A stretch of DNA of 64,000 nucleotides from Plumapathes pennacea (lineage: Eukaryota; Cnidaria; Anthozoa; Antipatharia; Myriopathidae), in the NCBI GenBank assembly GCA_964036295.1, contig OZ038462.1, positions 29,722,855-29,786,854 of the forward strand, read 5' to 3'. The position numbers were made by a program, and so were the translations under genes. The notes under the pieces are model-generated. The model made no database searches, had not been told where the DNA came from, and saw nothing but the letters and a program-made list of their open reading frames with translations. Below are positions 4,454-52,106 of this stretch, piece by piece (within the stretch, counting starts at the first letter, position 1; each line of letters begins with the position of its first letter).

Positions 4454-4610
4454 CTGAAATGGAATAGAAAAGTTAACCCTCTGAAACAACCATAATATGG
4501 TTTTCTAGTGAAATATCTGACCATCTGATCATGGGACAAAAAGCAATCACACAATTAGCATAAATCTCTGATTGACGCCTATTTACTTACTAAGTATGTT
4601 CAGAGACATC

Positions 4611-4925
4611 GTATGGTGACAATCTCTTCAGCATTATACACAATCCTTCCATTCCACTGCAGATAGTTCGCTGTTGACAGACAATTTGGTCCGGAATTTG
4701 AAGGGAGAGCATTAATGAGTTCAAGTCATTCTTGGCAAACCTCAATTCCGTGCGGCATTCTGTATCATCCCAGTTGTTCAAGACAAATTCATCAAACTTC
4801 CAGTACGGAAAACTCGGCTTTGATCTGTTGGCATCATAGAGCACAGCAAACTCCACATCGTCTATGAGATTTTCAGCGAATGCAATAGTTAAAGCATCAC
4901 GAACAGCGTTTAGACCACCAGCCAT
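4611..4925 (-). pseudogene. PIF/Harbinger (HARBI1-like) nuclease N-terminal fragment
   Basis: One frame of about 105 residues begins MAGGLNAVRDAL and includes DDVEFAVLYD, WDDTEC, LRFAKND, a CQQRTICSG motif and MEGLCIMLKRLS, the typical N-terminal part of animal Harbinger nucleases. It then runs into unrelated sequence and a stop, and the DDE catalytic half is absent. A dead remnant between RTK-A and RTK-B, not a host exon. Confidence 0.7.
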
Positions 4926-5393
4926 CTTTGTACACGAAGATCGACGGAAGCATGACGCAAATAAAACGCAACCCAGTTGAACGCGAGATTTAAAAAATGA
5001 TTTAATGGGCTTCTTCACCACAGGATACAGCACTAGATTACTTTCATGTCGAAAGTTACGATAATACAATAGAATATACTAGCTGGACCCCGTAAAATAC
5101 GGGAATCTTTTTTTTCTAACATGCATTGTGCTGAGTTTCGTCCAGCTTACTTGTGAATTAAAGAGTTGCGCCGAGTCCTATCCTACTACTCCTCCATAAT
5201 AATCCTTGGGTATGGTGTATTCCAATCCAGGCAATTAACACGATATACTGGCGTTCGAGAATAAAATTCACCGCCGTCCCATGTTTGCTAAATCACTTTT
5301 ATCGACAGAAAGTGACGGCGTCCTCGGCCCAGTCCTTATCGGTCAAATGGTGACGAATCACGTCGCCGTCGTGAGCCGCGCGCGTTGTCTTTG
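4926..5393. other. 3' flank of RTK-A / spacer before RTK-B
   Basis: Should contain the RTK-A 3' UTR. I found no clear polyadenylation signal on the minus strand, and no signal-peptide exon for RTK-B. Confidence 0.4.
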
Positions 5394-19673
<14,280 letters not shown>

Positions 19674-22292: not shown

Positions 22293-23521
22293 TATCATCA
22301 TCAATCTTTATTTAAACACGGTATTTCTCTCATACAAATGCTCTTCTAGAAATCCGTATAACCTATACTAATTGATAATAATAAATACTACTACTACTAC
22401 TAATAATAATAATGATTATAATAATTGCTAATATTTCAAAACGCTAAAAATGTATTACATACAATCATTTAAATTCTAAAAAATACATTATATCCTAGTA
22501 TAAAAGTTCCCCTAAAGTTATTGTCCTATTAAAAACTATGAAGACTAAAATGGTTATAAAAGATTTAAAAAGGATCTTAAATTTGTCTGACTTTTAAGGT
22601 CATTCGATAGGTTATTCCAGAGAACCGCCCCTCTATAATGGAAGCTATGTTTCCCTGCTTCAGTGTGTGGTCTTGGTACAAATATGTTATATGATGAGTT
22701 TCTTAAATTATAGCAATGTACAGAGTTTGTACTATCAAAGATTTGGGTCAAATAGTTTGGTACAATTTCATTAATTGACTTGTACATTAATATAGCTAAC
22801 TGTTTTGACCTTCGTGTCCCAAGATTATCCCACTTAAGTTCATCCAGTATGTCAACTGACCGCCTATCATAATTTGAGAGGGTCACCACCCTGGCAGCTC
22901 TATTTTGGAGGGTTTGTAGTTTGTCAGCCATCCCTTTCCCACAGCTTCCCCATACTGAACTACAGTAATCGAAATATGGTAGTACAAGAGAGCTGTACAT
23001 CATGAGTAATGTATCATATGGTACAAGATGTCTGACACGCCTTAGAGCTCCAATCCCCCCTGATGCTTTCTTTAAAATTTTGTCTAGTTGCTCCTTCCAA
23101 GTTAATGATTGGTCTATCTCAACTCCTAGATAATTATATGTTGTTTCCCTTAGCAGGGGTTTGTGATCTACCAGTACTTGAAACTGATGCTCAAGATGCT
23201 TTATCTTATATTGACTAGCTATTATCATATATTTTGTCTTGACCACATTCAGGCTCAGTTTATTTGCTTTTAGCCATGTATGTACTTTGCATAGGTCATG
23301 ATTCATCTGTTGTTCTAGTATTTTCTCGTCAGAGTTTGCGATAGTTAAGCTAGTATCATCTGCATACATCCGTACTTTAGAGTAGAGATCACAATTTGGA
23401 AGGTCATTTATATAGATTATAAAGAGTAGCGGACCAAGGATAGAACCTTGGGGTATTCCACATTTTATTGTACAGCTATCTGACAGCACACCATCAACAA
23501 AAGTTTTTTGTTTTCGTTCTG
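22293..23521 (-). mobile_element. CR1/L2/Jockey-type LINE, 5'-truncated copy
   Basis: Carries a 311-residue open frame with CGIPQGSILGPLLF, the MYADDT catalytic box and the complete C-terminus, ending at an (ATG)n tail. Nearly identical to the LINE in copy A but without its frameshift. Truncated at about 23,521 within the RT, so it cannot be autonomous. Confidence 0.85.
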
Positions 23522-23574
23522 AATTAGACTATGCTGCATTAGCGTCGTAAATATTACCCTTGCTTCGCTCGGGG

Positions 23575-25365: not shown

Positions 25366-25623
25366 CTGGAAAGAAACAGAAAACATGCAAAGGTTAAGTA
25401 ATAAATGAAGTCAAAAGATTCCCCCCCCACACACACACACACACACACACAACCCTCTTGAGTTTCAAGTCCAGTTCATGTTTGTGACGTTATTTACGTC
25501 AGTCAGTGATATTCACAATTGGCATCACATTGGCACTTACTCCGCTTACTTCCGCTGTCCAGATCGGGGGCTCAAAAATGTTGTCTCACTAGGGAACACA
25601 AGTTCCGTAGCCCAGATTCAGGG

Positions 25624-26550
25624 TAATCGAAATATGGTAGTACAAGAGAGCTGTACATCGTGAGTAATGTATCATATGGTACAAGATGTCTGACACGCCT
25701 TAGAGCTCCAATCCCTCCTGATGCTTTCTTTAAAATTTTGTCTAGTTGCTCCTTCCAAGTTAATGATTGGTCTATCTCAACTCCTAGATAATTATATGTT
25801 GTTTCCCTTAGCAGGGGTTTGTGATCTACCAGTACTTGAAACTGATGCTCAAGATGCTTTACCTTATATTGACTAGCTATTATCATATATTTTGTCTTGA
25901 CCACATTCAGGCTCAGTTTATTTGCTTTTAGCCATGTATGTACTTTGCATAGGTCATGATTCATCTGTTGTTCTAGTATTTTCTCGTCAGAGTTTGCGAT
26001 AGTTAAGCTAGTATCATCTGCATACATCCGTACTTTAGAGTAGAGATCACAATTTGGAAGGTCATTTATATAGATTATAAAGAGTAGCGGACCAAGGATA
26101 GAACCTTGGGGTATTCCACATTTTATTGTACAGCTATCTGACAGCACACCATCAACAAAAGTTTTTTGTTTTCGTTCTGTAAGGTATGAAGCAAACCAGT
26201 TTAGGCTTGCTTGGTCGACACCATAAAGTTTCAGTTTACCTAACAGAATTTTGTGGTCCATGGTGTCAAAGGCCTTTTTTAGGTCCAGAAAAATAACTCC
26301 CTTTAGAAGACCCTTATCTATATTTTGGTACCAGTCATTTGTGGCATCTAGTAGAGCCGTCAATGTGGAATGCAAGGGTCGGAAACCTGATTGTGAATCT
26401 GTAAGTATGCCATGTTCTGTAAGATAACTGTAAAGTTGGTTAAAGATAATCCTTTCTATGAGCTTAGTGACAGCTGGCAGAACTGAAATAGGTCTATAAA
26501 ATGCCTGATCAAATGCCTGGACACTTACCGCTGACGAGCGAGCAAACATA
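25624..26550 (-). mobile_element. LINE fragment in copy B, 3' part deleted
   Basis: Same insertion and same 5' truncation point as the LINE in copy A, so inherited through the duplication. The 3' 983 bp (LINE 3' end plus flank) have been lost at 25,623/25,624. The RT frame is open and includes the MYADDT box. Confidence 0.85.
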
Positions 26551-26596
26551 GACTGAAACGTATTTCGGCGCTAAGCGACAAATCACGTGTACTTAC

Positions 26597-31670: not shown

Positions 31671-32012
31671 TGTTGCGGCCTTTCCCGAACAATACCCTTT
31701 GCGGAATTGTGCGAACAATACCCTTTGCTGCTTTGAACAATGCTTTTGCCGAACTATGAACATTGCTTTCATGTAGCCTTCATTTACCCTTCTATTGTTG
31801 TTTTCCCGCGTGTATTCTAGTTTATATGCAAATTATTCATGTACTGTTCAGTTCAATTTTTTCTCTCGCGTTGTAAGTTAAGTCAAGTTCAGTTCAGTCG
31901 TCTTCGTTCATTATAGTTTTTAGTTCTTCCGTACAAATAGAAAACCGTTCGAATTTGTAAGTGAAGAGTATCAGGGAGACAAGAAAGTATGATCAACCAT
32001 TTCTCCCCTACA
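31671..32012 (+). repeat. BEL/Pao 5' LTR
   Basis: 342 bp, TG...CA ends; starts TGTTGCGGCC and ends CCCCTACA. Confidence 0.95.
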
Positions 32013-32026
32013 TTTCTAAAAACTAT

Positions 32027-35000
32027 ATGAAACAGTCGCTGATGAGCCGCTCGGAGAAATCTGAAGTCTCTGGCGCGTCGCGCCACATGCACCATGATGC
32101 CGAAGGAATCCTACAAGAGAAACTGCACACACTCAAGAAGTCCAGGAGTGGATACGTGGGAACAATCACGTCTATTTGCAGAAGGATTGAAGCCTCTCTA
32201 AAGGAATTTGGGAACGTCACGGAGGTTAGGAATCTGCAGCTAAAGTTGAAGAATGTCTGGGAAAGCCTCCAAGCCAGTTGTGAACAATATTTAGGTCTTG
32301 TGACAGATAAAGAGAGCCAAGAAGCCACGGAAACACGCGCTCAATGTGACGCTCAACGAGTTAGAGTGGAAGAATATAACGAGAAGATTGAAAGTTTTGT
32401 GGCAGCTGCGGCCACACACTTCAATGAACAAGTTGTCAAGGACTTCGGTAATCTCAGAATTACTTCAGCATCTGAAGTATCTGGCGTCAGTCGAGCAAGT
32501 TCGAGATATCGGGAGTCAAGGTTAGCCGCCGCGAAAGCAGTTCTGCTTCAAGAACAAGCACAAGAAAGGAAACAGAAAGCCATTGAGAACACGAGGAAAA
32601 GAATGCAATTGGAAATGAGGCAGAAGGAATTTGAACTACAACAGCGACGCCAACAGTTGGAATACGAGCTTGAATTGGCCGAACTGAACGCAGATGACGA
32701 CGTTTTGGATGCAAAGAATCATGCAGAACTCGCTCAGTTAGATGCCAGTGTTGCTAAGCAAGATCTTGCGAGTGCTCTTAACGGAGATTATGAAGGCATA
32801 TCGACACACGTGGCTCCGAATGTTACAACTGTAAACGACAGCATTCCTGCCACCGTTGCTAATGCCGAAGCCTCATCTGCTGCTGCTCCTACTGTTCCAA
32901 CAGTGAATTATGTTTTATCACCAACTTCACCATCCCTTGCCTTTCCTTTTGCGGAAGGACAAAGAGTTGCCGGATTGAATGCGGAACCACGGACTAACCC
33001 GACGTTTACAAATGCAGCGCTATTTCCGCAAGTGCCGCCGGTTCCTGCACCACCCCAGCCCACGAGTGAAAGTCTTCTGGCCATGATTGTTTCTACAATG
33101 GAAAGGATTGGCATGTCCCAAGATCTGCCAGCAATACAAATTCAGAAGTTTGATGGTTCCCCGGAAACGTTTCCAGTATTCAAGCAGAGATTCTACCAGA
33201 TGGTACAGTCAAAACCACTGGATGAATCAACAAAGATGACGCGACTGTTGCAGTTTCTCGAGGGTCCCGCCTTAAAGGCCGTGAGAAGATACGAATCCGT
33301 CCCAGGAGGTTTGGCCAAAGCTCTTGATGTTCTTCAAGATCGTTTCGGCCGTCCCTGCCAAATCGTGCGAGCCTGTGTAGCCTCACTCACGAAAGGCCCT
33401 GTCTTGGCTCCAAGCGATAAAGAAGGGTTAAGACGTTTTGCAGACTCAGCCCAAGTAATGTACGACACCCTAGAGGCAATGGATTGCTTGGGAGAGATGA
33501 ACACTGAGAATCTTGAAAGAATGATTCTTCGCTTACCGAAATGGGCTCAAGGAAAGTTCGGAGGGTACCTGATGAAGATTGAACATGAAGGCCGTACCAT
33601 GCCGACGTTTAAAGATGTGGTCAGTTTCCTTAAGGACCGCGCTGATGTTGCCAATCATCCTTTCTTTTCCAAGGCGTCTGGCGATATCGCCACCACAAGG
33701 TCTACAAAACCCAAAGATAAGCCATCTCCATTCAAGGTTACTACTCTCTCAACAAGCAGTGATATCACTCATTGCACTAATCCCCCTGATGCCAATAGTA
33801 CCAAGAAACCTGAGTCCTGTGCCATGTGTGACCTACCTCATGCACTCTACCGTTGTGAGATTTTCAAGTCCAAGTCAGTACGCGATCGAGGCGAATTTGT
33901 CAAAAGGAAAGGGATTTGCTTCAACTGTATCAGCTCAACTAAGCATACTTCCAGGTCATGCAAATCAAAGGTGCGCTGTAGGATACCAGGCTGTGGGAAA
34001 CCTCATCACACGTTGCTGCACCTCACTGAGCCTCTACAGTACCCGGAAGTAATCCAAGACGATAACCGTGTAACTGTAACTTATCCTGACGAACCCGTTA
34101 CCTCAACTTCTTGTTCCACTGCTGCTTCGCCCGCCTCATCGGAGGTTCTCCTACAAGTAGTTCCTGTTAAGATCATTGCGAACAATGGGAAGACAACCAC
34201 CACCTATGGTTTGATTGACTCAGGCTCTGACGTCACGATGGTTGACCCATCACTGACGAAACATCTGAACATTGAGGGCGAACAAGGTGGACTTTTCCTT
34301 TCGACGGTAAATAGCAAAGGCGTGCAGGAACAAGGAGTGAAGGTCAACTTCAAACTTGCGTCAGTTGATCACGACAGTCAAGAAGTCTACGTACAAGGCG
34401 CGTGGGCAGTGAAAGAGCTCACCATTCCACTTAAGCACGTCACAGTTACTAACCAAGTCAAGAAGTGCCCGCATCTCCAGTACCTACCATACCCGGACGT
34501 GGAACGAAAGAAGATATCAATCCTAATTGGAACCAATGTTCCAGAGGCTTTCATCCCTCTCGAAGTCAAGAAAGGAAGAGCTGACGAGCCTCTTGCTATC
34601 AAGTCCTGTCTTGGTTGGAGTTTCCTTGGACGATGCGCTAGTAATAATGTCAAGAGACAATTCAACTTAAACCATGTTTGTCACGAAGTGACACTGAGCC
34701 GTCAACTGGAGAAATTTTGGGAAGTTGAATCCTATGGCACTGACAAGCACGAAGCCAAGCCTCTATCTGTTGAAGACCGTAAAGCCGAGAGAATCATCGA
34801 GAACACGATCACCAAAGTTGATGGCCACTACCAAATGGACCTTCTGTGGCGACACGATAATCCCAGTTTACCATACAACCGAGTGCTCGCAGAGGCAAGA
34901 CTACAGCACCTGAAGAAGCGCTTTCAGCGAGATGCAGAATTGGAAGCCAAATACAGGGCCGTGATCGAGGACTACGTAGCCGAGGGCTATGCCAAGAAGT

Positions 35001-36505
35001 TGACTAAGAAAGAAGCAGCGGAAAGGACTAACATTACTTGGTACCTACCTCATCATCCCGTATTGAATCCCAACAAGCCTGGGAAGGTACGAGTGGTTTT
35101 CGACGCAGCTGCCAAGTTCAAAGGCACCTCATTAAATGAGCAATTACTGCAAGGTCCAGATCTCGCCAACAATCTCGCTGGTGTCCTTATCCGTTTCCGT
35201 GAGGAAGGCGTCGCATTTACCGCTGATATCCAGGCAATGTTCCACCAGACAAGAGTTAGTCCGAAGGATACCGATGCTTTGCGATTCCTGTGGTGGAGCT
35301 CCAACATCGGTGATCCACCTGACGAGTATCAAATGCTCGTGCACATCTTTGGCGCCACATCTTCGCCCTGTTGTGCAAACACATCCTTGAGGAAAACGGC
35401 GAATGACAACAAGCAGAGCTACGATCCAAAGGTCATCGAAACTGTGCACAGGAACTTTTACGTCGATGACTGCTTAAAGTCAGTACCTACGATTGAGCAA
35501 GCCATCAAGTTTGCAGACCAACTAATCAAACTGCTTAAAGAGGGTGGTCTAAGACTAACCAAATTCAATAGCAACTGCCGTGAAGTACTTGCATCCATTC
35601 CAGCCAAAGAACGTGCCAACCCAAGTATTAACTTAGACCTTGATCTACTACCAGTTCAGCGTGCTTTGGGATTGCACTGGAATGCCGAGACCGACACTTT
35701 CCAGTTCAGAGTTGTGCCAACCAACAAGCCGCCTACCAAACGGGGAATCTTGTCTGTCGTGAGCTCCCTGTACGACCCTCTCGGGTTCCTGAGTCCGTTC
35801 GTCTTGCTGGTTAAAGTTCTTCTGCAAGAACTATGGAGACTGGAAGTACGCTGGGACGAAAGAATCAAAGATCCACACCTATCTCAATGGCAAAGCTGGA
35901 TAGAATCGTTGGCCTATATCACTACTATAAGGATCCCGAGATGCTACAAGGCCCCAACTCTTACCGACGTACTCACTGACGTCCAAGTTCACTTCTTCTC
36001 TGATGCATCAAAGCACGGTTACGCAGCAGTATCTTACGTAAGGATGGTCGATGATGAAGGTAGAATACACTGCGCCTTTGTTATGGGCAAGACTCGCAAC
36101 GCACCTATGAAAGGATGGTCTATCCCCCGCTTAGAGCTTCAAGCGGCCGTCCTCTCAGCGCGCATGCACAGACTAATTCGCGAAGAATTGGATTTGCCGG
36201 TTAACCAGTCATTCTTCTGGTCTGACTCCGTAACTACTCTCCAGTACATCAGCAATCAGAAGCGGCGATTTCAGATGTTTGTTACAAACCGAGTCAACGA
36301 AATCCACGATGTGAGCTCACCGTCGCAATGGCGACATGTGCCTGGCTCTCTCAATCCAGCAGACAGTGGATCAAGAGGCATGAAGATCCACGCATTCAAG
36401 CCGGGATGCCATTGGTGGAACGGTCCAAAGTTTCTTTGGAAGCCAGACGATCAGTGGCCTGTACGACAAGTGGCCGAGGTCCCCGAAAATGATGAAGAGG
36501 TCTGA
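32027..36505 (+). CDS. BEL/Pao gag-protease-RT-RNase H polyprotein
   Basis: The frame opens at 31,961, inside the LTR, so I prefer the first ATGs after the LTR (32,027 or 32,042). In order: a charged coiled-coil-rich gag region rich in Q/E/R; a DUF1759-like segment ([18 protein letters not shown]); Cys/His knuckles from about 33,818 ([14 protein letters not shown]); an aspartic protease ([12 protein letters not shown], about 34,211); RT with FDAAAKF and the catalytic YVDD at 35,459-35,470; and RNase H ([16 protein letters not shown]). Ends at TGA 36,503-36,505, before the integrase in the same frame. It copies element RNA into DNA within virus-like particles. Confidence 0.92.
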
Positions 36506-36520
36506 GCCCCAAGCAGCGTA

Positions 36521-38041
36521 ATGAATTTGAACACAGGGTCCACCCTCGATCTATTCATTCGCCGCTACTCTTCCTGGCCTCGTCTTCAAGTCTTCATGGC
36601 ATGGCTACTGCGTTACGTCCAGCATATCAAGAAAGAACAAGTTGCCCGCGGAGGAATTACGCTAACAGAGATACGCCAAGCGTCAAAGGAAATCATCCGA
36701 CTAATACAGAGCCAGTCCTTCTCTAAAGAGCTAAATGCATTACTAGAGAAAGGACAAGTCAAGGGACATAGCAAGTTAGCCAACCTCAACCCGACGTTGA
36801 TTGATGGAGTTATTCGAGTTGGAGGAAGGGTTCGTCACGCACCAATCACCTTCAATGCCATGCATCCAGTGATACTTCCGAAGGACCATCCAGTCGCTAC
36901 CCTGATAGTACGTCATCATCACGAAATCCTGGGCCATGCCGGACGCGAGCACGTTCTATCGGTCGTGCGCCAACATTACTGGATACTGCAAGGAAGAACC
37001 CTTGTCCGCCGAGTGCTACGACAGTGCGTTGACTGCCGGAAGCGAAATGAGTCCGCAATGCAACAGATGATGGCCGACTTGCCCAAGGAAAGGTTGACCC
37101 CATACGAGCCACCATTCACGTACACGGGAACAGATTTCTTTGGCCCGTTTTCCGTGAAGAGAGGTCGAGGAACTGATAAGGTGTATGGATGCATCTTCGT
37201 CTGCTTTAACAGCCGTGCGATTCACATTGAAGATGTGAGTTCACTGGAAACTGACACCTTCATCCAAGCTCTGCGAAGGTTCATGTCCACTAGAGGTTGC
37301 CCGAGGGAAATTTGGAGTGACAACGGTACTAACTTCTCTGGAGCAGAAAGGGAGATCAGACGATCGATTCGAGAGTGGGATCAAGAGGCAATTAAGGGAG
37401 CATTGCGCGTAAGGGAAGTCGAGTGGTACAATTGCCCAGTACCAAAGTGGCGGTTCCAACCCCCAACAGCCAGTCACATGAGTGGAGTCTGGGAACGATT
37501 GATCCGAAGCGTGCGCAAGTCAATGAAGGCGGTTCTGGGACACCCAAACGCGCTCGTAGGGTTGGAAACCTTGCGTACGGTATTTTCTGAAGTCGTATCT
37601 ATCCTGAACGGCCGTCCACTTTGCCCAAGCAGCGACGACCCTAATGATCTCGAAGCACTCACTCCGAGCCACTTCTTGCTGCAGCGACAAAACATGGCGA
37701 TCCCGCCTGGACTGTTTGCAAAGGAAGACCTGTACTGCCGCAAACAGTGGAGATGCGCACAGTTCCTGGCCAACTGCGTTTGGACAAGATGGATCCGCGA
37801 ATACATCCCTACCCTACAACGTCGACAGAAATGGCTATTTAAGAGACGAAATTTGGCTATTAACGACCTAGTCCTGTTAGTAGATAACAGCACTCCCCGC
37901 GGCCACTGGTCGCTCGGCCGCGTGACCAAGGTGTTTCTTGGTGCAGACTCCCGAGTACGCACAGTAGAGGTGAAGACACGAAATGCCAGCAGGCTGGTCC
38001 GCCCAGTAGCGAAACTGTGCTTGCTAGAGGAATCCAACTAA
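36521..38041 (+). CDS. BEL/Pao integrase
   Basis: 506 codons in the same frame as the upstream polyprotein, 15 bp after its stop. Contains an HHCC zinc motif ([10 protein letters not shown] then CVDCRKR), the catalytic core with [21 protein letters not shown] and a glutamate in [11 protein letters not shown], and a C-terminal DUF5641-like domain ([13 protein letters not shown]). Normally made as part of one polyprotein; here the in-frame TGA either blocks this or is read through. Confidence 0.92.
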
Positions 38042-41146: not shown

Positions 41147-41302
41147 AAAATACTAGAAATTAGAAACGCAGCAAGTCTCACTAGAAGGAATAGGTTCGTC
41201 GGGAACAAGCACAGTCAGAAATAGAAGCAACGGTAATTCGGTTTTAAACAAAGACAGATTCCAGAAACTACACCGGCAAAGACAATCATGAAAGGTAATT
41301 AA

Positions 41303-42410
41303 GAGTGACTTTCTGTAAGAATCAAGAACTCGGTGACAGGACCGAAAAATCCGACCCCCTCATATTTTGTCACAAAGAACCTTAAGGTGAACTATTACTA
41401 AAAACGACATTTAAACTTTCAGCCGGATTTTAATTTTTTTATTACAGAGGAAAAACGGGAATTGACTCAAAGACCCTTCTGACCGCTAAAAATTGCCTAT
41501 TTTCAACGGGCTCGCGTGGAAATACTAAAATGTTTAGCTAAATATAATTTCGCCAGCAGCTAAGGCATTCTTTCATCTAACTTTGCAAGGAAAAAAATCA
41601 AGAAAAAAAAATTTCAACTGAATTGAAGACCTTCGATCATGGTATACTTCGCCCATTTTCCCGAAAAGCGAATTTTGGTCATTTTCAGGGGAGTGAAATC
41701 ATGGCTCTTGGTACATAAAGTTCTAACTAGAAATTATATCTCAGAGCAAGTCGGATACAAGCACTTCAATTTTCAAAACTAAAATTTTGGGGCCCGCTAA
41801 ACGCTTCCTAGTTGCACTCTAAAATGTTTAAGGTACTTGCATAAATTAACGCCAGTAACGCAAATACCAATTAGCCGTTGCACAACGACAACAACACAAT
41901 CAAAATAAAAGAATAGAGCACGCTGAACACACAAAATCAATATATATTTCATTTCATTTTACTTGCGATGTTGTTTTATTATGTACTTGCTTTAGGATTT
42001 ACGTTTATGAATTAAAATTTTAATCAAAATGCAGAAAACGCACTTAAAACCGGATCAGGTAACCTGCCATTAAAAATCAACTATATAAGAGGTTTGCCGT
42101 TGTTTCAGGCTGCTGACGGGTCTTAAGATACGCTCAATTCAATTAGTTACTCTCTCACTATTGTGGACAGTCAAAATAATTAGAGGCAGCACAACACGTG
42201 TCACGCAACACTACTGTCGCGCGGTAAATTATTTAACATTATGGTAAACTCTGAATTTTGCGGGCTCTTTTCTGTCGTTTGTTTTTAGTGTTCTGAACGT
42301 GTTTTACCAAAATTTAGCAAATTGTCTGCACACGTGGTACGTTTACTTACACTATGCTTTTACCGCGGTGAATGCACGGCATACGTCACTAATCAGGTAA
42401 TGGATCCGGC
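41303..42410 (+). repeat. Left terminal inverted repeat of the TTAA element
   Basis: Reverse-complement match to 50,750-51,881. The outer 950 bp align well and the inner 150 bp only loosely. Confidence 0.8.
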
Positions 42411-42829
42411 TTTGCAACTCAACTGACAGAGATAAACGCTAGGAGAAACATTTAGCGAAAAACGAAAACTTTGAAGCAATCTTGTGTTGCTGTAAATGTC
42501 TGTTTAACACAAATTTATTACTATTCAGGCGAGCAGCAGATTATTTTTGGCACAAATCTGCATGATCTGTTGTATAAGAAGAGATAAAACTTATTTCCAT
42601 GGTCAAGGTCTGTCGTGCCAATCATGAGCTGGAAGAAATGATGTACGGCTTTAGGTCTTCGCGCGGATCTAATCAGTTACCAGTTGATAATAATCCAGAA
42701 AATTAGTAAGCAGTTTAGGGCGACTACCCGGACAAAAGTTTTAGTAGTAGTTTACAGTTTACTCAGCATATATATACTAAGGTGAAGAGCCCACCGAGGT
42801 AGAACTTAAAGAATTTTAGATACAAATGC

Positions 42830-43737
42830 TTATAGCTTTCGGCTACAAGAGCACTCTTCAACAAGTTTTTGCAAGAGATCGATGTATGGTGCCTTCTTGC
42901 GCACGTTGGGGGCAACGAGGTCGAATTTCTGGCACGAAATCTTGAGCAATGGAAGCTTTAACTTCTGGAGGGACTTGGATTTTACCAGTGCACAAGTATT
43001 GTATTGGTCATGGCAAACTGGGTGATGCAAGCTCAAGGAAGCCAGCACTGCCTCCCTTCCTGCCCTGAACTCGCGTTCCTCCTCCACAGCCAGTGCATCT
43101 TCGTCTACTGTCAGTGGCACTGAATGTTTGCGCACCTTTGCAGCCAGTCTTGAGAAGAACGATGTCACCTGCTACTCGGTCAAAAACTCTGAAGGCAAAA
43201 ACAGCCTTTTCTCATCCGTGTCCTGTGCTCGTCTCATGTCTTTCGCCACAACTTCAGCAGCCGCCTTTTGCCCAGATTCCTGGCCAATGTTGAACTTGAG
43301 CTCCAAGTAATTTTTCTGCTTGACATTAAATCTGTATCCTTTCCTGTTTGGCCTCAGTGCCCAGCCCTCGTACATGGCATCGCGTGTTATTTCAGAATGG
43401 CATTCAGGAGTGAGGGCTGGTACCTCACTGGAACCCTCGTGGAGAATCCTCGCATATGAGCGTTTTGCCCGATCGATTAAGTTGACCCTCTCCGTTTTAA
43501 GGACACACTTGCCATGGGACAGGTGGTTTTCCAAGGATAAATAACGCTGAAAAACACGAACACACCCTTCCTGCGGACAAGCAAAGATCCCTGCCGTTTG
43601 GATTTCACAGCTCTGTTCCATTGACTCTGGCCAAGCACTAGGTGGCTCTTGCGTCCCTTTTTGGCCCTTGCCACGAGGATCCACAGGCTTAAAATCACCT
43701 TCGGAAAATTTCTCGTCGAACCAGTGGTAAGTTTGGC
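42830..43737 (-). pseudogene. TTAA-element gene, last exon (zinc finger, nonsense codon)
   Basis: Acceptor TCCTTCTTAG. Contains TYHWFDEKF, the C2H2-like CPQEGCVRVF, GWALRPNRKGYRFN and, after TAG at 43,172, QVTSFFSRLAAK. Normal stop at 42,830. Confidence 0.6.
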
Positions 43738-43906
43738 CTAAGAAGGACACAATAACATCATGGGTGATTATTTTAGGCAAAACTTGCCTAGTTTGTTTTT
43801 TCTTTATAATCCTTAGTGTGCTTTCATTTGCATTTTTCTTAGAACGCTATACTTCTACTTACAAAGACATTTTAACAGACTTTGTAACAGGGAAAAACTC
43901 AGATAC

Positions 43907-44760
43907 CTCTTGTCCTGTCCAATGATAATAACTTTCCACGTCCCACTTCATAGGCTCTCCATGCCCAGATGCCGTTTTCCTCAAAACAGAAGTTATTTAG
44001 ACGACTGACTCCCTCAAGTTTTGGGCGCTCTTTGACTTTCTCGTCTGACTGTGTGTTGATCTTCACCACGGCGACCCTTACCCCTGAAACGCCTCCACCA
44101 GACAGTATCGCCTTTTCCATCTCTCTGACGTCGGTGACATCGTTGCCTTCATTGATATAGTGTCGGATGTGGGATTTCACGGCTGCTGCCACACGGTCGC
44201 AGGGCCCTTTGCCTCCTTGTGGGTCAGAGAAGTCAATTCGACCAATTGATATTCCACAGTGGTCTGAAAGGGCTGGAATTGCTGTGATGGTAGTGGCAGA
44301 GTGGTAACAGCCAGCATTGTCTTGGCGGAAGTACGCCTTCTTAATCTCGGGATGCTCTGCCTGAAGAGTTTTCATGACATGCTCCATAATGAGGACTACC
44401 GCTGGACTATCCTGGGTGCAACTTTCGATGACATGCACAAAATACTGCGACTCCAGCTGACCAAGCGTCTTCCGGACAACCACAGAAATGTGCCAAGAGA
44501 TTCCTCTCTTACCAAACTAGTCTGCCTGCGATTCTCGGTACTTTTGTGGCAGGTACTTCATAGCCCAATCTTGAGTGATTAAAACTGAACTCTCATTAAG
44601 CAAATACATTAGATCTAGCCGTGCTTGATCCTGTCTAACCGTGCGAAGTTGATGGCATTTCCGTGTCTGGATAGCCTGCACTGCGTGCTGAGCAACATAC
44701 AAGGCTTCGTCACGATCTTCTTCGTTGAGGAAGTTAGCTTCATTAATCTTCTCCAGAATT
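43907..44760 (-). pseudogene. TTAA-element gene, exon 4 (catalytic-like core, nonsense codon)
   Basis: Contains TQDWAMKYLPQKYRE, then TAG (44,517), FGKRGISWHISV, YFRQDNAGCYH and DFSDPQGGKGPCDR. Donor AG|GTATCT at the 3' end; the 5' limit is uncertain. Confidence 0.6.
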
Positions 44761-44932
44761 ACAATTTAGAGAACTCAAGATAGATAGACAAAATAAAGCC
44801 AAAGTGCACTCGTTTTCCCAACCTCATAAACCTTTCTAAATAAAGTTGTTTACTGAATTGTTTTGATATATTTGTTATGGTCCATTATGAATTTGTTGTG
44901 ACAGTTGCTTGATTTAACTTACCTTTAAGTCC

Positions 44933-45945
44933 CCTTTCAAGTACTGCTTTTCCGCCTTCAATGCCTCCTGGACTGAAGCACTGAAGCTGCATCCTTCTTA
45001 TCAACATCAAGCTCCGCCATGCTTTGCGCTAGTCTTCCAAGTTTATCAAAGGCCTTACCTCCCTCGGCTGCAAAATAATCTAAGCCTTGGAGGGACTTCC
45101 GTACAGTGGCACTGCATTCAGAAAGAATCCTCAGCATTGTTGAACTGCTGAAAGGCTTGAATCCTATTTCTTGGCAATACTTGGTGTACTGCTGTACGAT
45201 CCGCTGAGGAATCATGCTTCTAGTAATGTTAGGAACCTCCAGCGTTTCACCAGACGATAGGTGAAGACGCTTCTGACCAAACGGAAGGTCTTGCACAAAA
45301 TGTGGGCTGGTTATAAAGCTTAAGAAGTGATCCAGCTGTGCCTCACTAATTCGTAGCCTTATAGTGTGCTGATCTTGAACGTGCGCTCCTTTTCCAAACT
45401 GAAGTCGATGAAGATTTGCTACAGTGTAGCGATATCGAGTTAGCCCTGGAAGAGCTTCAGATATTGCTGAAAAATCTGTCACACCTGGCATGATTGACAG
45501 AATTTGTTTGCGAGTATCCGAGCCAGATGCATTCGTGTAAGCTTCGGCGAGGGATTCCAGATAGACCCTCTCTGATGGAGGCAGAGACACCTGCAGCCCA
45601 ATCTTCTCATTTATTCTTTGCCGTTCTTGCATAGCTGTCCACAGATGTCCAGCATTTTCCGGCGAAATGACCTTCAGCACAGTCGCTACTGCATCTTCAG
45701 TCTTGGCAATGTACCGGAGTCTACTAAACGCGCTCGCTAGCTTCACACCATGGGAGCCATGCCTTCCCAATTGGCAGAACACCACAGGCATCTAGGAAGG
45801 TTTCCAGCTTGTTAAGTAATTCATCCTGTTCACATCCATCGCTCTCAGAAGATGTTGCCGACAACGGATAAAAACTTTCATCTTTCGTTATAGTTAAGCA
45901 AGAAATGCTATCTGCTAGCTCCTCCGCTTGGCTGGTATTACTCTG
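44933..45945 (-). pseudogene. TTAA-element gene, exon 3 (frameshifted)
   Basis: Largest open part is 44,958-45,791. It begins in one frame (LETFLDACGVLPIGKAW), shifts near 45,725 to the frame of LRYIAKTEDAVATVL, and shifts again near 44,985 before a donor at 44,931. Confidence 0.55.
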
Positions 45946-46290
45946 CTACGTAAAAACGGGAAAAAAGCAGAGAAAGGTGCGGCTGGGCACCAGAAGCCGA
46001 GATAAGGGTGTATTTGGGAGGCAGAAGAATTTTCAATCCACTTTTTAAATGTTACAAGCTAGTATGCACCGACCTGGTCACTGTCCGGAAGAGGTGAATT
46101 GTATTGCAGCTGCTGCAGTATCCGAATGGCTTGGAGACAGCACTTAATCCTCTAATGCTGATCTTATGCCCACACCAGAAAAGCCTTCTCTACAACGCTT
46201 GCAAATTGCTAAACAGAAAAACAAAGAACTGAAATTAGCGTATAAACTAAATGAAACAGGGAAACAGGGATTTTATGGTGAACCTACATC

Positions 46291-46395
46291 ACCCCCCCCC
46301 CCCCCCCCCCCCCCCATTCAATGTTGGGTAGTTGAGCATGGTTCGGCTTATAGCTGCACCACGGGCCAACATTGAATGGAGGGGAGGGGGAGGGA
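46291..46395. repeat. Poly-C tract with flanking hairpin
   Basis: About 24 C residues (46,292-46,315), then CATTCAATGTTGG and its exact inverted copy CCAACATTGAATG (46,366-46,378), then a G-rich run. The C-run and G-run extend the stem imperfectly. Confidence 0.85.
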
Positions 46396-46720
46396 CTTGA
46401 AAACAAGAAATATGAGACCCCCATAGGTTGTATGGACTTACATTGTGCTCCGGATGTGCGTAAGTGGAGCGTCCCAACGACTTTTGACCATGATTGTAGC
46501 TTCATATTGACCGTATTTATGCGTCATTTTTGAAAGGAGCAAACCGAGATTTTTAACATGAATTACATAATACGCAAGCGTGCGAGTTATTGTGAAAAGC
46601 ATCCAAACGAGGCTCTGTACGTACACGTGGCTGCGAAATTTCTATACTGATTTATTCTACAGTCTGCGAATGCCATCCCAATATATTTTCTAGATTTCAT
46701 ACAAAAGCTGTATCACTTAC

Positions 46721-46939
46721 GTGAACCAATAGGAACAAGATGCTGAGTAGCGTGGAAGATATGTGCAGATTGTCTGCTGTCCAGTCCACGATCGAATTTC
46801 GCGGTTACTGTCTTATGATGTGCCAAATCCGCAGGTACCGAGCAACGCAATTTGTTGCATCGCCAACGAATGCCATAAGCATCTCGGTGGAGTGAACAAA
46901 TGGTCAGCCGTAAATGACATTCCATTGTCTTAAACACAC
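46721..46939 (-). pseudogene. TTAA-element gene, exon 2 (Cys/His region)
   Basis: 219 bp, phase 1-1, acceptor TTCAACAG, donor C|GTAAGT. Contains LTICSLHRDAYGIRWRC and HLVPIGS. Confidence 0.55.
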
Positions 46940-47367
46940 CTGTTGAATTATCATAATCTGTTCTAAGATGGGACTACTTTAGACAGGAGCGAGCAACTGC
47001 CGTGGGTAAAGTACAGTTCAAGTCTCAATTAAATTCCGAAAGTGCAGAAACTTTAAAAATTTATGAGAAAAACGTAATTTATGGGAAAAACATTTTTCCA
47101 AGATCTACAAACTGAAAAAGAGAAACACTTGTACTCTTCGCTGAACTTTAAAACAGTGTCGAAAATATGCATAGGCATGTCCCACGACTAATGACATTTT
47201 TCATCCAGCTTTCTCGCTCGTGATGTTGGCGAGTCCGACGTAAATAATGTAATTTCTGATGTGTGTGTGAAGCGACTTCGTAATATACGAGAAATAAAAA
47301 AAGCCGTGTATTTCTGCGCGTCTTGCACGACTAAGTAATTGGACCGTCGCTGGATGTACTTACTTAC

Positions 47368-47578
47368 CAACACGCGCCAAAAGCAGCTTCTTCTCAATTT
47401 CAAGAGAAGCATCCCGAATCCCCAATAACTTCAAGTGAGGCTTGATGTCCTTGGTGCATTCCTTTAGGCTAACACAATCTGCCATAGTCCAATTTTCAGG
47501 ACTAGGCCCACACTGACTTCCAGTTATTGCAGAGAAACTACACGAAGCCATCACAGTTGAATTGAATTTGTTTGTCAA
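47368..47578 (-). pseudogene. TTAA-element gene, exon 1
   Basis: ATG at 47,576 or, in better agreement with the following residues, at 47,551 (MASCSFSA). Ends RVG at donor G|GTAAGT, phase 1. Confidence 0.5.
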
Positions 47579-47584
47579 GTTAAA

Positions 47585-47875
47585 ACATAGGTCCGCAAAG
47601 CGTACGTGAAGCTATTTGCTAGTTGATGATAGTCTATGATAGGTAGTTCGTGTTACAACGGGGCACGAACTATCATCGAATATTATCACCGTTTGATCGG
47701 GGTTTTACACTATGTTCTACTATGCCAGCTACGTACTATGCATGACCAAACACAAATGCACAAACATGACAGTTTATTATATGATTATTTTGAGCTGATC
47801 GACATAAAAGGAGGAAAGTATAGCTTGCCAAAATATTTCAAGTCGTTCTGTAAATTTCTGCGAGGTAAGCCAGAC
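47585..47875 (+). repeat. Internal segment of the TTAA element, inverted copy at 62,660-62,945
   Basis: Shares long blocks such as ATGATAGTCTATGATAG and CATGACAGTTTATTATATGA with the reverse complement of 62,660-62,945. Lies just upstream of exon 1 of the element gene, so it may hold its promoter. Confidence 0.75.
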
Positions 47876-48230
47876 TTCGTTATAGTAGTTTCGTATTAAC
47901 GTAACACACTCCAGCCAAACAAACCTGTTTCTCGTGCTCTTCGAACGGGGGTGAAATAGATTCACAGTAAAATTTCCTGTCGACGTTTCAGCCAATTTTT
48001 CATTAGCGACAAAACCCGCAGACAAACCACAGTCGATCTGGTCATGAAATCATGTGTCAACAAACATATCATGCGAGGTAAACCAGATTTTGACTCGTTA
48101 TAATAGTTTCGTAACGTAACACACTCCAGCCGAACAAACCTGCTTCTCGTGCTATTCGAACGGTGGTGAAAAGGATTCACAGTAAAATTTCCTGTCGATT
48201 TTTCATTAGTGACAGAATCCGCTCGAGACA
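47876..48230. repeat. Tandemly duplicated segment
   Basis: Two diverged copies (47,876-48,060 and 48,078-48,220) sharing GTAACACACTCCAGCC and GATTCACAGTAAAATTTCCT. Confidence 0.75.
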
Positions 48231-48300
48231 ATTTTATAAACAAACTAGACTGGCCTTGCCAGTGAGCTCGCGGCGTGAGTTGGGTCGAGACCAGAATATA

Positions 48301-49212
48301 AAATGGAAAGTAGGGGACAAGAGCGGAACTCCCAAGAGAGACTTCCAATTTCTCACCATAAAAATATCACACAGTATAGAGAACTTGGCTTTTAACACCT
48401 TGCTCTTTTGACACCTTGATTAAACTAAAAATTATTATTACAACACTCATACACTTGCTTCTTAAAGGTTGAGCGACCCTGCATCTTGAGAATGCGTGAC
48501 ATATCTTTTTATGCACAATCGATTTTGACAGTTTGACCTTAACTCATATTTCTAATCAGAGGCCACGATTAATCCAGCCTTCGCTTCACTACTTATGTGT
48601 TTTCTTTTCTTAACTCAATACGTTTCTTCTATCAGGCTTTCGAGTATTCGTGCTCTGTAACAAATATAAAATTGAAAGCGAGGAATGTCACACGACAGAT
48701 GTTTACAATATTATTGCGCTTTTGTTCACAGTGTGTTCAGTCCATTTGTGACTGCAAACTCAATCCTCAGAATTATTTCGGTGTATTTTTCATTTCTGGT
48801 ATTTAATGAACATTGCGAAACAAAGACTACATGATCGAATGAAAGAAACACTTCAACAGGCAATGTACGATACGCAGAAGAATTTTATGAGGCAACAGAT
48901 GTCATGTACAGAGTAAGGCATAAAGCGTCATTGTTTTACGGCTAAAGCTCACCGTAGCTTTGGTTTCTGTTTTCGCCCTGTTATCTTCCCAAAAGTATTT
49001 CGTGTCGCCACAGAAAGTTTCGTTGGGACTAAATACTTATCGGCGACAGAGATATTTGCAATACCCCAGAAGTACCATCAAACATTTGTTTACGGCTATT
49101 CTCAAAGCTTGTGCGGTGAACGCGAGCCAAAATCTTTTCCTAAAATCCAGTTTATCCATGCCTATTCCACAGAGCCAAATGGCGTTGAATTTGAATGGGA
49201 TGCAGTTTACTT
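48301..49212. repeat. Dispersed repeat, copy 2
   Basis: Copy of 40,028-41,146, interrupted near its end by copy 3. Confidence 0.85.
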
Positions 49213-50016
49213 TTTCGCTTCACTACTTATATGTTTTCTTTTATTAACTCAATACGTTTCTTTCTATCAGGCTTTCGAGTATTCGTGCTCTGTAAGAAAT
49301 ATAAAATTGACAGCGAGGAATGTCACACGAGAGATGTTTACAATATTATTGCGCTTTTGTTCACAGTGTGTTCAGTCCATTTGTGACTGCAAACTCAATC
49401 CTCAGAATTATTTCGGTGTATTTTTCATTTCTGGTATTCACTGACCATTGCGAAACAAAGGCTACATGATCGAATGAAAGAAACACTTCAACAGGCAATG
49501 TACGATACGCAGAAGAATTTTATGAGGCAACAGATGTCATGTACAGAGTAAAGCATAAAGCGTCATTGTTTTACGGCTAAAGCTCACCGTAGCTTTGGTT
49601 TCTGCTTTCGCCCTGTTATCTTCCCAAAAGTATTTCGTGTCGCCACAGAAAGTTCGTCGGGACTAAATATTTATCGGCGACAGCGGTACCATCAAATATT
49701 TGTTTACGGCTATTCTCAAAGCTTCCGCGGTGAACGCGAGCCAAAATCGTTCCCGAAAATCCAGTTTATCCGTGCCTATTCCACAGAGCCAAATGGTGTT
49801 GAGTTTGGATGGGATGCAGTTAACTTTTACACACAAGTAACGAGCAATTCAGTGGCCACATCTCGAGTTGTTTAGCGAAGTCAATTACGTCATCGCCCAG
49901 CACGTGATAATATGAACCAATCACCGTGTGCTGATCCTCGACCCACAAAAAGGAAAAAAAATAAAATAAAAATCTCCATTCTTAAGCTCTCGTGGGCCCC
50001 AGGCCCCCGCGAGCAA
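49213..50016. repeat. Dispersed repeat, copy 3 (tandem, partial)
   Basis: Begins inside the repeat (TCGCTTCACTACTTATATGT) and repeats 48,582 onward through the terminal CCCCCGCGAGCAA. Joined directly to copy 2, so copies 2 and 3 are tandem. Confidence 0.85.
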
Positions 50017-50129
50017 CAACTCAGACATACCACAGTCGATCTGCATTTGCAATTATGGCATGAAATCATGTGTCAACAAACATATCAGCGAACGCAAAAA
50101 AACTCGGAATAAGCTTCACACCATAAGCG

Positions 50130-50740
50130 TCACACCATACAGCTGTGTTCCTTCTTTTGTGAGCGGAGCGTATATTCGCAAATGTGTCCAGAAATGTCGC
50201 TCTAAATGTAAATCTGTGTCGCCTGTTTGCCAGATACTACGGATATGTCAGCCGGGGGCTGAAGGGGGAGCAGATTTCCACATGCAATCAAAGAATCGGC
50301 AACGCTCACAGCCGCCATTAAATAATGCCTTGAATTTCCACGTGCGAGAGAGCCAATTATATTTAGAAAACCCCTCCCTGGAGAGGTAATTTAGCTTCTG
50401 ACATTCTGTCGCAAAGTTATAACATTAGCACGGAAACCCTTTACTGGAAATCTCTCTGTGCACTCTTTGTGTTAAGTAGATAATAAAAGACAAACTTTCT
50501 CACAGGACCTGTACCACGGCGGCTTTTATATGGATAACACTTCATGCTCCTCCCCCCTCAGTAGTTTTTGCCACCTAGAGGGGGAGCATTTTAATGACCT
50601 AATGAGATGGGCCGAACGGCTGTTCAACTATCGCCCAAACGCCGACATAGAAGCTATTTGCATGTTGCAAATAGCTTCAAAAATGCGACACGCTAAACCC
50701 TACCGGAAAAGGTGTTGCCACTGCATGCCAATACGATGAG
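50130..50740 (+). repeat. Internal segment of the TTAA element, inverted copy at 61,840-62,465
   Basis: Shares TGTGAGCGGAGCGTATATTC and GATGGGCCGAACGGCTGTT with the reverse complement of 61,840-62,465. No coding support. Confidence 0.75.
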
Positions 50741-50749
50741 TCATCACCT

Positions 50750-51881
50750 GAAAAGTCACGTGTGTCGTGTTTACACGAGACAGTACATTCACCGCTGTAA
50801 TACACCGTTGCACAGCGCTAAGCGTACCACGCGAGTATACAAAGCTCTAAATCTTAGTAAATGAAGTTCAAAACATTAAAGACAAAAAAAAAAAGAAAAA
50901 AGAATACCCGCAAAAATTTGAATTTTACTATCTATGTTAAATATTTTACCGCGCGACAATAGTGTTGCGTGACATGTGTTGTGCGCGTACTCTGCTGCCT
51001 CTACTGAATATTTTGACTGTCCACAATAGTGAGAGAGTAACTAATTGAATTTAGAGCTTTTTAAGACATGTCAGAAGCCTGAAACAACTGCATACTTCTT
51101 ATAGTTGGTTTTTAATGGCAGATTAGCTGCTCCGGTTTTAGGTGCGCGTTGTGCATTTTGATTATATTAATTCATAAACGAAAATCCTAATGCCAGTACA
51201 TAATAAAACAACATCGCAAGTAAAATTCAGTGAAATGTAGACTGATTTTGTGTGTTCTACGTGCTCCATTTTTTTATTTTGATTGCGTCGTTATATCTTA
51301 AAACTGCTAATTGGTATTTGAGTTACTGACGTTAATTTATGCAAGTACCTTCAACATTTTAGAGCGTGACTGAAAAGCGTTTAGCGGGCCCCAAAATTTT
51401 ACTTTTGAAAATTAAAGTACTTGTATCCGACTTGCTCTGAGATACAGTTTCTAGTCAGAACTTTATGTACCAAGAGCCATTTCACTCCCCTGAAAATGGC
51501 CAAAATTTGCTCTTCGGCAAAATGGTCGAAGTATACCACGATCGAAGGTCTTCAATTCAGCTAAAATATTTTTATTTCTTGATATTTTTTCTTGTGAGGT
51601 TAGATGAAAGAATGCCTTAGCTGCTAGCAAAATTATATTCAGCTAAACACTTTAGTATTTCCACGTGAGCCCGTTGAAAATGTGCAATTTTTAGCGGTCA
51701 GGAGAGTCTTCGAGTCGATTTTCCGTTTTTCTTCTGTACTAAAAAAATTAAAAAAATCCAGCTGAAAGTTTAAATGTCGTTTTTCACAATAGTTCACCTT
51801 AAGGTTCTTTGTGACAAAATATGAGGGGGTCGAATTTTTCGGTCCTGTCACCGAGTTCTCGATTCTTACAGAAAGTCACTC
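50750..51881 (-). repeat. Right terminal inverted repeat of the TTAA element
   Basis: Partner of 41,303-42,410. Shared blocks include CCACAATAGTGAGAGAGTAA near 51,020 and CCGAGTTCTCGATTCTTACA near 51,850. Confidence 0.8.
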
Positions 51882-52106
51882 TTAAGAACACGATCATAAA
51901 TAGTTTTAAGCAAAGAAGGACTTCAGAAACTACACCGGCAAGATCATGAAAGGCAATTAAGAACATCATTGCTGCGCAGCGAGCGAAGCAAGCGAAACAG
52001 AAGTTCATATTTCTTATGGTGGAAAAACCTCGATACGCTTCACTGCGTCCGTTTGCAATTAGACCACACTGCCTCACGCGCTTGCAACCAAAATGCTTTG
52101 CGACAC

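What the first reader, a model, noticed from the sequence alone, without database searches (positions are those of the whole stretch)
41303..51881. Large TTAA transposon with 1.1-kb inverted repeats and an unfamiliar DDE-like gene
Clear ends (GAGTGACTTTCTGTAAGAAT inverted), TTAA flanks and a multi-exon internal gene form a coherent autonomous-type element. TTAA targets suggest piggyBac or Kolobok relatives, yet the protein motifs (QDNAGCYH, FSDPQGGKGPCDR, a C-terminal C2H2 finger) match neither as far as I can tell. It may define an undescribed superfamily in cnidarians.
Basis: partly seen in the sequence, partly recalled or inferred. Interest (0 to 1): 0.75.

Follow-up and report, generated by a model that had tools for sequence, protein, structure and literature searches.

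The report
Broken copy of Sola3-like TTAA transposon
This is a decayed copy of a jumping gene with very long matching ends that inserts at TTAA sites; it belongs to a large family in this animal's genome and most likely to a known class (Sola3), so it is a well-defined but probably not a new kind of mobile element.

Summary
Genome copies settle the mobile unit: of 15 copies read at both ends, 14 are flanked by TTAA/TTAA and one by TTAG/TTAG. Diverged relatives (37-60% protein identity) carry the same gene and TTAA, with GAG (once GTG) ends; three read at both ends have 0.57-0.98-kb repeats. The gene is a ~1000-residue transposase with an invariant D-D-D triad. The window copy is dead: two stops, a frameshift, a 353-bp deletion, nested insertions.

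'Undescribed superfamily' is not supported. The protein is not piggyBac (positive control in the same genome) and lacks the Kolobok C/DxxH signature. TTAA plus DDD fit Sola3 (recalled), and coral genomes are annotated with much 'Sola-3'. A profile comparison with negative controls links it to a second DDD family here, which I recall as another Sola group. No named Sola3 sequence was available and no paper I could open states Sola3's target, so membership is likely, not proven.

The parts
41299..41302 (.). left TTAA target duplication
   Evidence: the neighbouring repeat unit has one TTAA at the same place
41303..42345 (+). left terminal inverted repeat (~1.05 kb; ~1.1 kb in L039/L040), begins GAGTGACTTTCTG
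42830..43846 (-). C-terminal part of the transposase: by eye a C2H2-like finger, a GWAL/homeodomain-like block and a SAP-like tail; stop codon at 43172-43174
   Evidence: SAP hint is 1jjr at E 0.025
43899..44765 (-). catalytic exon of the DDD transposase; D codons at 44568-44570, 44319-44321 and 44196-44198; one in-frame TAG
44764..44776 (-). point where ~353 bp, present in copy L039 and holding the 3' splice site and the C/H-rich DHC..CxHxH..CxxC segment, is missing
44958..45945 (-). N-terminal part of the transposase, split over two frames that overlap at 45724-45791 (frameshift)
47360..47551 (-). candidate first exon (MASCSFSAITG...), also present in L039
   Evidence: not confirmed by transcripts
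46287..46496 (.). 210-bp stretch (poly-C hairpin) absent from L039 and L040: nested insertion
47589..50678 (.). 3.09-kb stretch absent from L039 and L040: nested insertion(s); contains a recent high-copy repeat at 48242-50019
50819..51881 (-). right terminal inverted repeat
51882..51885 (.). right TTAA target duplication

Best explanation
A decayed copy of a cut-and-paste DNA transposon of the Sola3 type. A ~1000-residue DDD transposase binds the ~1-kb inverted repeats, cuts at the GAG...CTC ends, and integrates at TTAA with a 4-bp duplication. Shown: boundaries, TTAA (once TTAG) duplication, recurrence with the same gene in diverged families, three invariant aspartates, purifying selection on the catalytic exon, near-identical copies, and deletion derivatives that keep both long repeats. 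Inferred: RNase H fold, cutting chemistry, transposase action on the long repeats, and the Sola3 label.
For: TTAA/TTAA in 14 of 15 copies read at both ends, TTAG/TTAG in the other. L047, L048 and L049 (1032-, 1016- and 1000-residue frames) have 571-, 982- and 966-bp inverted repeats with TTAA on both sides. D481, D566 and D607 invariant in 9 of 9 aligned members. dN/dS 0.10 between L010 and L012, at dS 1.16. The catalytic exon of L039 and L040 is open (343 residues) and the two copies are 98.7% alike over 2.7 kb. Profile link to a second DDD family: probability 94-97%, against 0.2% for piggyBac, 0.1% reversed and at most 1.1% in 30 column shuffles. 'Sola-3' covers the second most bases among the DNA classes tabled for three coral genomes (PMC11370458, table passage) and is enriched in non-syntenic regions of Acropora tenuis (PMC12314368, passages).
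Against: No named Sola3 protein could be compared. Sola3's TTAA target and GAG termini, and the Sola identity of the second DDD family, are recalled; no passage I opened states Sola3's target, and one table gives AT as target of a 'Sola' element of unstated group (PMC5704228, passage). One relative (L047) begins GTG, and one single end (L044) is followed by TTCA. One of three second-family members alone reaches only 49%. No structure confirms an RNase H fold. No library match names the core: window pieces in Pfam, PHROGs and NCBIfam, nine members in Pfam, PDB by sequence and profile (the one window hit is a designed cytochrome at E 0.0015, unconvincing).
Confidence: 0.8

Rival explanations
1. 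A DDD transposon group with TTAA targets that is related to Sola but separate from described Sola3, i.e. a new group at superfamily or subgroup rank.
For: No library match names the core in what was searched. Homology to the second DDD family is remote (15-22% identity).
Against: Many matches in this genome (143, a lower bound that includes fragments), so it is unlikely to have escaped repeat libraries; coral genomes carry an abundant class labelled Sola-3.
Confidence: 0.12
2. A piggyBac element.
For: TTAA target.
Against: The piggyBac DDE model PF13843 gives 102 matches in the same genome, none at the places listed for this family (compared by eye; both lists are lower bounds); profile comparison with 8 piggyBac proteins 0.2%; ends are GAG with ~1-kb repeats, not 12-19 bp with CC[C/T]T (PMC2872659, passage).
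Confidence: 0.01
3. A Kolobok element.
For: TTAA target and 5'-RR...YY-3' termini, as Kolobok has (PMC9587614 section 3).
Against: No conserved C/DxxH after the second D: 1 of 8 segments read holds such a string, at an unconserved place; 2 further members were missed by the pattern. No H is invariant between the second and third D. Not compared with Kolobok sequences.
Confidence: 0.05
4. Not a transposon: a chance or segmental inverted duplication around a gene.
For: None found.
Against: Dispersed copies with unrelated flanks and TTAA on both sides; paralogous empty site.
Confidence: 0.005

Closest known systems
Sola3 group of the Sola superfamily (Repbase; Bao et al. 2009, recalled, not held)
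   Same: TTAA 4-bp duplication (recalled for Sola3), DDD triad, GAG/CTC termini (recalled); 'Sola-3' is an abundant annotation in coral genomes
Second DDD transposase family in the same genome (L062-L064), from recall another Sola group
   Same: Three catalytic D regions align: DWAMKF/DFAEN, DNAGCY/SDGxxSQ, GKxxCDR/HGKGxxDG
   Different: 15-22% identity; its ends and target were not read
piggyBac
   Same: TTAA target; DDD catalysis (recalled)
   Different: No PF13843 match, no profile similarity, long GAG-ended repeats
Kolobok
   Same: TTAA target, RR...YY ends
   Different: Lacks a conserved C/DxxH signature

Membership tests
Sola3 | 4-bp TTAA target duplication (recalled for Sola3) | tested here: met
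   14 of 15 copies read at both ends TTAA/TTAA, 1 TTAG/TTAG; 3 of 3 related families read at both ends TTAA/TTAA
Sola3 | DDD catalytic triad | tested here: met
   three invariant D in 9 of 9 aligned members, spaced 82 and 40 residues apart in the window copy; catalytic role inferred, no structure
Sola3 | GAG...CTC termini (recalled) | tested here: inconclusive
   met in the window family, L048, L049 and the L042/L043 end; L047 begins GTG; the criterion itself is recalled
Sola3 | sequence similarity to named Sola3 transposases | not testable with these tools
   no Repbase/Dfam proteins held
Sola superfamily | detectable similarity to other Sola groups | tested here: inconclusive
   94-97% profile match, with controls, to a second DDD family whose Sola label is recalled
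piggyBac | match to DDE_Tnp_1_7 (PF13843) | tested here: not met
   no match in three window pieces or 9 members; the model finds 102 matches elsewhere in this genome
piggyBac | 12-19-bp inverted repeats with CC[C/T]T ends (PMC2872659, passage) | tested here: not met
   GAGTGAC, ~1.1 kb
Kolobok | 5'-RR...YY-3' termini with TTAA (PMC9587614 section 3) | tested here: met
   GA...TC in the window family; L047 is GT...AC
Kolobok | C/DxxH signature after the second D (PMC9587614 section 3) | tested here: not met
   not conserved
DDD/E transposases in general | RNase H fold of the core | not tested

The most novel reading that the evidence does not exclude
A TTAA-targeting DDD transposon group distinct from described Sola3, with ~1-kb inverted repeats and a transposase carrying a C/H-rich module before the core and a C2H2-like finger, a homeodomain-like block and a SAP-like tail after it.
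Probability: 0.12. Interest if true: 0.5.

Novelty: new member of a known kind. Interest (0 to 1): 0.22.

Why it matters
It shows that a TTAA-targeting transposon that is neither piggyBac nor, by signature, Kolobok is common and recently mobile in this genome, with open-frame members and with deletion derivatives that keep full ~1.1-kb repeats. No Pfam model matched nine members (only chance-level hits), so such proteins will probably stand as uncharacterised in gene catalogues; a profile would correct that. One target in three DDD groups is a good case for comparing how transposases pick and duplicate a site.

Tried and rejected
Relatives were sought in viral contigs and in bacterial/archaeal genomes for both DDD families: none confirmed. 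PDB searches gave no transposase; one search's single hit is a designed cytochrome at E 0.0015. PADLOC, tried on L049's protein alone, gave none. A full-text search for protein motifs found 39 papers with any of five strings; in the 20 listed, only two short strings occur, in unrelated papers, and the three longer strings do not occur. Papers on Sola3: 21 hold 'Sola3' or 'Sola-3', 20 listed; in the passages I opened none states its target. Other searches on Sola, TTAA and related terms. PMC5704228 tables AT as target of a 'Sola' element of unstated group. Bao et al. 2009 and Yuan & Wessler 2011 are not held. Considered and rejected: piggyBac, Kolobok, KolobokP (long direct, not inverted, repeats; PMC9587614 abstract), segmental inverted duplication.

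In one search I set the right end of L039 and L040 one base short, so its table prints CTTA; one search shows the TTAA. The first empty-site alignment overlapped itself and was replaced. L044's one read end is followed by TTCA, not TTAA. L041 and L046 show only unpaired candidate ends and are not counted. One search scored 40 of 89 candidates and listed 42 repeat matches; I read 34 of these ends (15 pairs, 4 singles) and left 8, among them truncated ones, so the sample is not random. Two of the four singles share the same flank and may be one duplicated site. On checking, I corrected an earlier claim that Sola-3 is second in copy number in three corals: it is second in bases in all three, second in number in one.
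Full report
OBSERVATION. The element lies at 41303-51881 with TTAA at 41299-41302 and 51882-51885. The 20-base end sequence occurs only at the two ends, inverted. The inverted repeats align over ~1.05 kb at 85%. In full copies L039 and L040 the repeats are ~1.1 kb and 88% alike between sides, while same-side stretches are 93-94% alike between the window and those copies. The difference between the two repeats of one copy is therefore mostly inherited and does not date the insertion.

TARGET. The window insertion sits in one unit of a local repeat. Joining the flanks with one TTAA gives a sequence that aligns, with small gaps, to the neighbouring unit, which has a single TTAA at the same place. 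A genome search with the left repeat listed 42 matches, having scored 40 of 89 candidates. I read 15 copies at both ends: window, L039, L040, L050, L051, L052, L053 and eight more. 14 are TTAA/TTAA and one, L052, is TTAG/TTAG. Four further single ends read TTAA, two of them with the same flank. Eight matches were not read. TTAA is 331 of 63,997 4-mers (0.5%) in the window. The TTAG/TTAG copy suggests a true duplication rather than a fixed part of the element.

THE GENE. It is on the minus strand. The window copy has a TAG in the catalytic exon and another at 43172-43174, a frameshift in the N-terminal exon, a ~353-bp deletion at 44764-44776 relative to L039, and stretches at 46287-46496 and 47589-50678 that L039 and L040 lack. 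L039 has open stretches of 339, 343 and 312 residues for the N-terminal, catalytic and C-terminal parts, with plausible splice sites between the first two. L040's catalytic exon is open too, but its N-terminal exon lacks a part. L046-L049 carry the protein as one stop-to-stop frame of 974-1032 residues.

FAMILY. The catalytic exon gave 143 matches in the genome, a lower bound that includes fragments (135 of 385 candidates scored), at 34-100% identity, many in long open frames. In nine aligned members, some of them only the catalytic part, three aspartates are invariant; the window spacing is 82 and 40 residues. dN/dS between L010 and L012 is 0.10, at a high dS of 1.16, so the protein is under selection. 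L048 (7586 bp, 982-bp repeats 94% alike), L049 (6700 bp, 966-bp repeats 98% alike) and L047 (6.6 kb, 571-bp repeats 93% alike) have TTAA on both sides; L048 and L049 begin GAGGCTG, L047 GTGTCATTG. In the 55-60% group, single ends in L042, L043 and L027 read CTC|TTAA, but L044 reads TTCA. L045 shows one CTC|TTAA end. The association of gene, ends and target is thus old.

DERIVATIVES. L050 and L051 (3.8 kb) keep both ~1.1-kb repeats and only a C-terminal remnant of the gene. Of the 15 copies read at both ends, nine are 3.7-3.84 kb long by their coordinates; only L050 and L051 of these were read through. L052 contains a 708-residue frame that looks like a reverse transcriptase by eye and L053 further TTAA-flanked stretches. 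A tblastn with family and piggyBac proteins found only family remnants in L050, L051 and L053, and nothing in L052; there a remnant was seen with the window protein. Window, L039 and L040 were not searched with piggyBac proteins.

WHAT IT IS. piggyBac: PF13843 gives 102 matches in this genome, none at the places by eye, and none in our proteins. Kolobok: ends fit, but the C/DxxH signature is not conserved. Sola3 remains as the known TTAA group (target recalled from Bao et al. 2009; that paper is not held). Against this, no passage I opened states the target of Sola3, and one table gives AT for a 'Sola' element of unstated group (PMC5704228). Coral genomes are annotated with much Sola-3: 17,315, 4,051 and 3,249 copies in three species, second in bases among the tabled DNA classes in each, second in number only in the first (PMC11370458, table passage). 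Acropora tenuis has Sola-3 enriched in non-syntenic regions (PMC12314368, passages). These are labels from other genomes' annotation and were not compared with our sequence.

A SECOND DDD FAMILY. Three cores (L062-L064) compared by profile with our family gave probability 97.0%, 95.7 and 96.4% and 94.4%, with the three D regions aligned in the printed alignments. Single members scored 81, 93 and 49%. Controls: piggyBac 0.2%, reversed 0.1%, best of 30 column shuffles 1.1%. E-values of a one-against-one comparison are not calibrated for a database. The result places our family in a wider DDD clan. That the second family is a Sola group is my recollection and not a result.

MECHANISM. Most likely cut-and-paste: the transposase binds the long repeats through its N-terminal region, C/H-rich module and C-terminal finger/homeodomain-like/SAP-like parts (by-eye assignments; the SAP hint is E 0.025, with no Pfam match of note), cuts next to TTAA and integrates into TTAA with a 4-base stagger. 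Shown: ends, duplication, conservation, recurrence, near-identical copies (L033 and L034 99.9% over 3.8 kb). Not shown: excision, protein-DNA contacts, fold.

VERDICT. A real, well-bounded TTAA transposon family with many copies; the window copy is dead; most likely Sola3, hence a new member of a known kind.

Noticed in passing
window 48242-50019: A ~1.78-kb repeat without an evident long gene inside the nested insertion; 41 other near-full-length matches at 98-100% identity are listed in the genome (a lower bound), twice as adjacent head-to-tail pairs. A very recent high-copy element, not identified; it holds an internal ~634-bp duplication.
   Followed up: partly
window 31961-38038 (+): Two long consecutive frames (1514 and 511 residues) that look by eye like a BEL/Pao-type retroelement.
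   Followed up: no
window 11542-12429, 22557-23528, 25575-26570 (-): Reverse-transcriptase-like frames that by eye belong to one LINE-like family, nearly identical where the printed parts overlap.
   Followed up: no
L053 positions 2770-6549 and 3617-5694: Candidate further TTAA-flanked inserts with GAG...CTC ends, one nested in the other, inside a copy of this family.
   Followed up: partly
L062-L064: A second, remotely related DDD transposase family with ~1000-residue frames in the same genome, without Pfam or PDB match of note.
   Followed up: partly
L033, L034, L035, L037: A related group with near-identical copies (L033 and L034 99.9% over 3.8 kb) and open 644-residue frames, suggesting recent activity or duplication.
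   Followed up: partly
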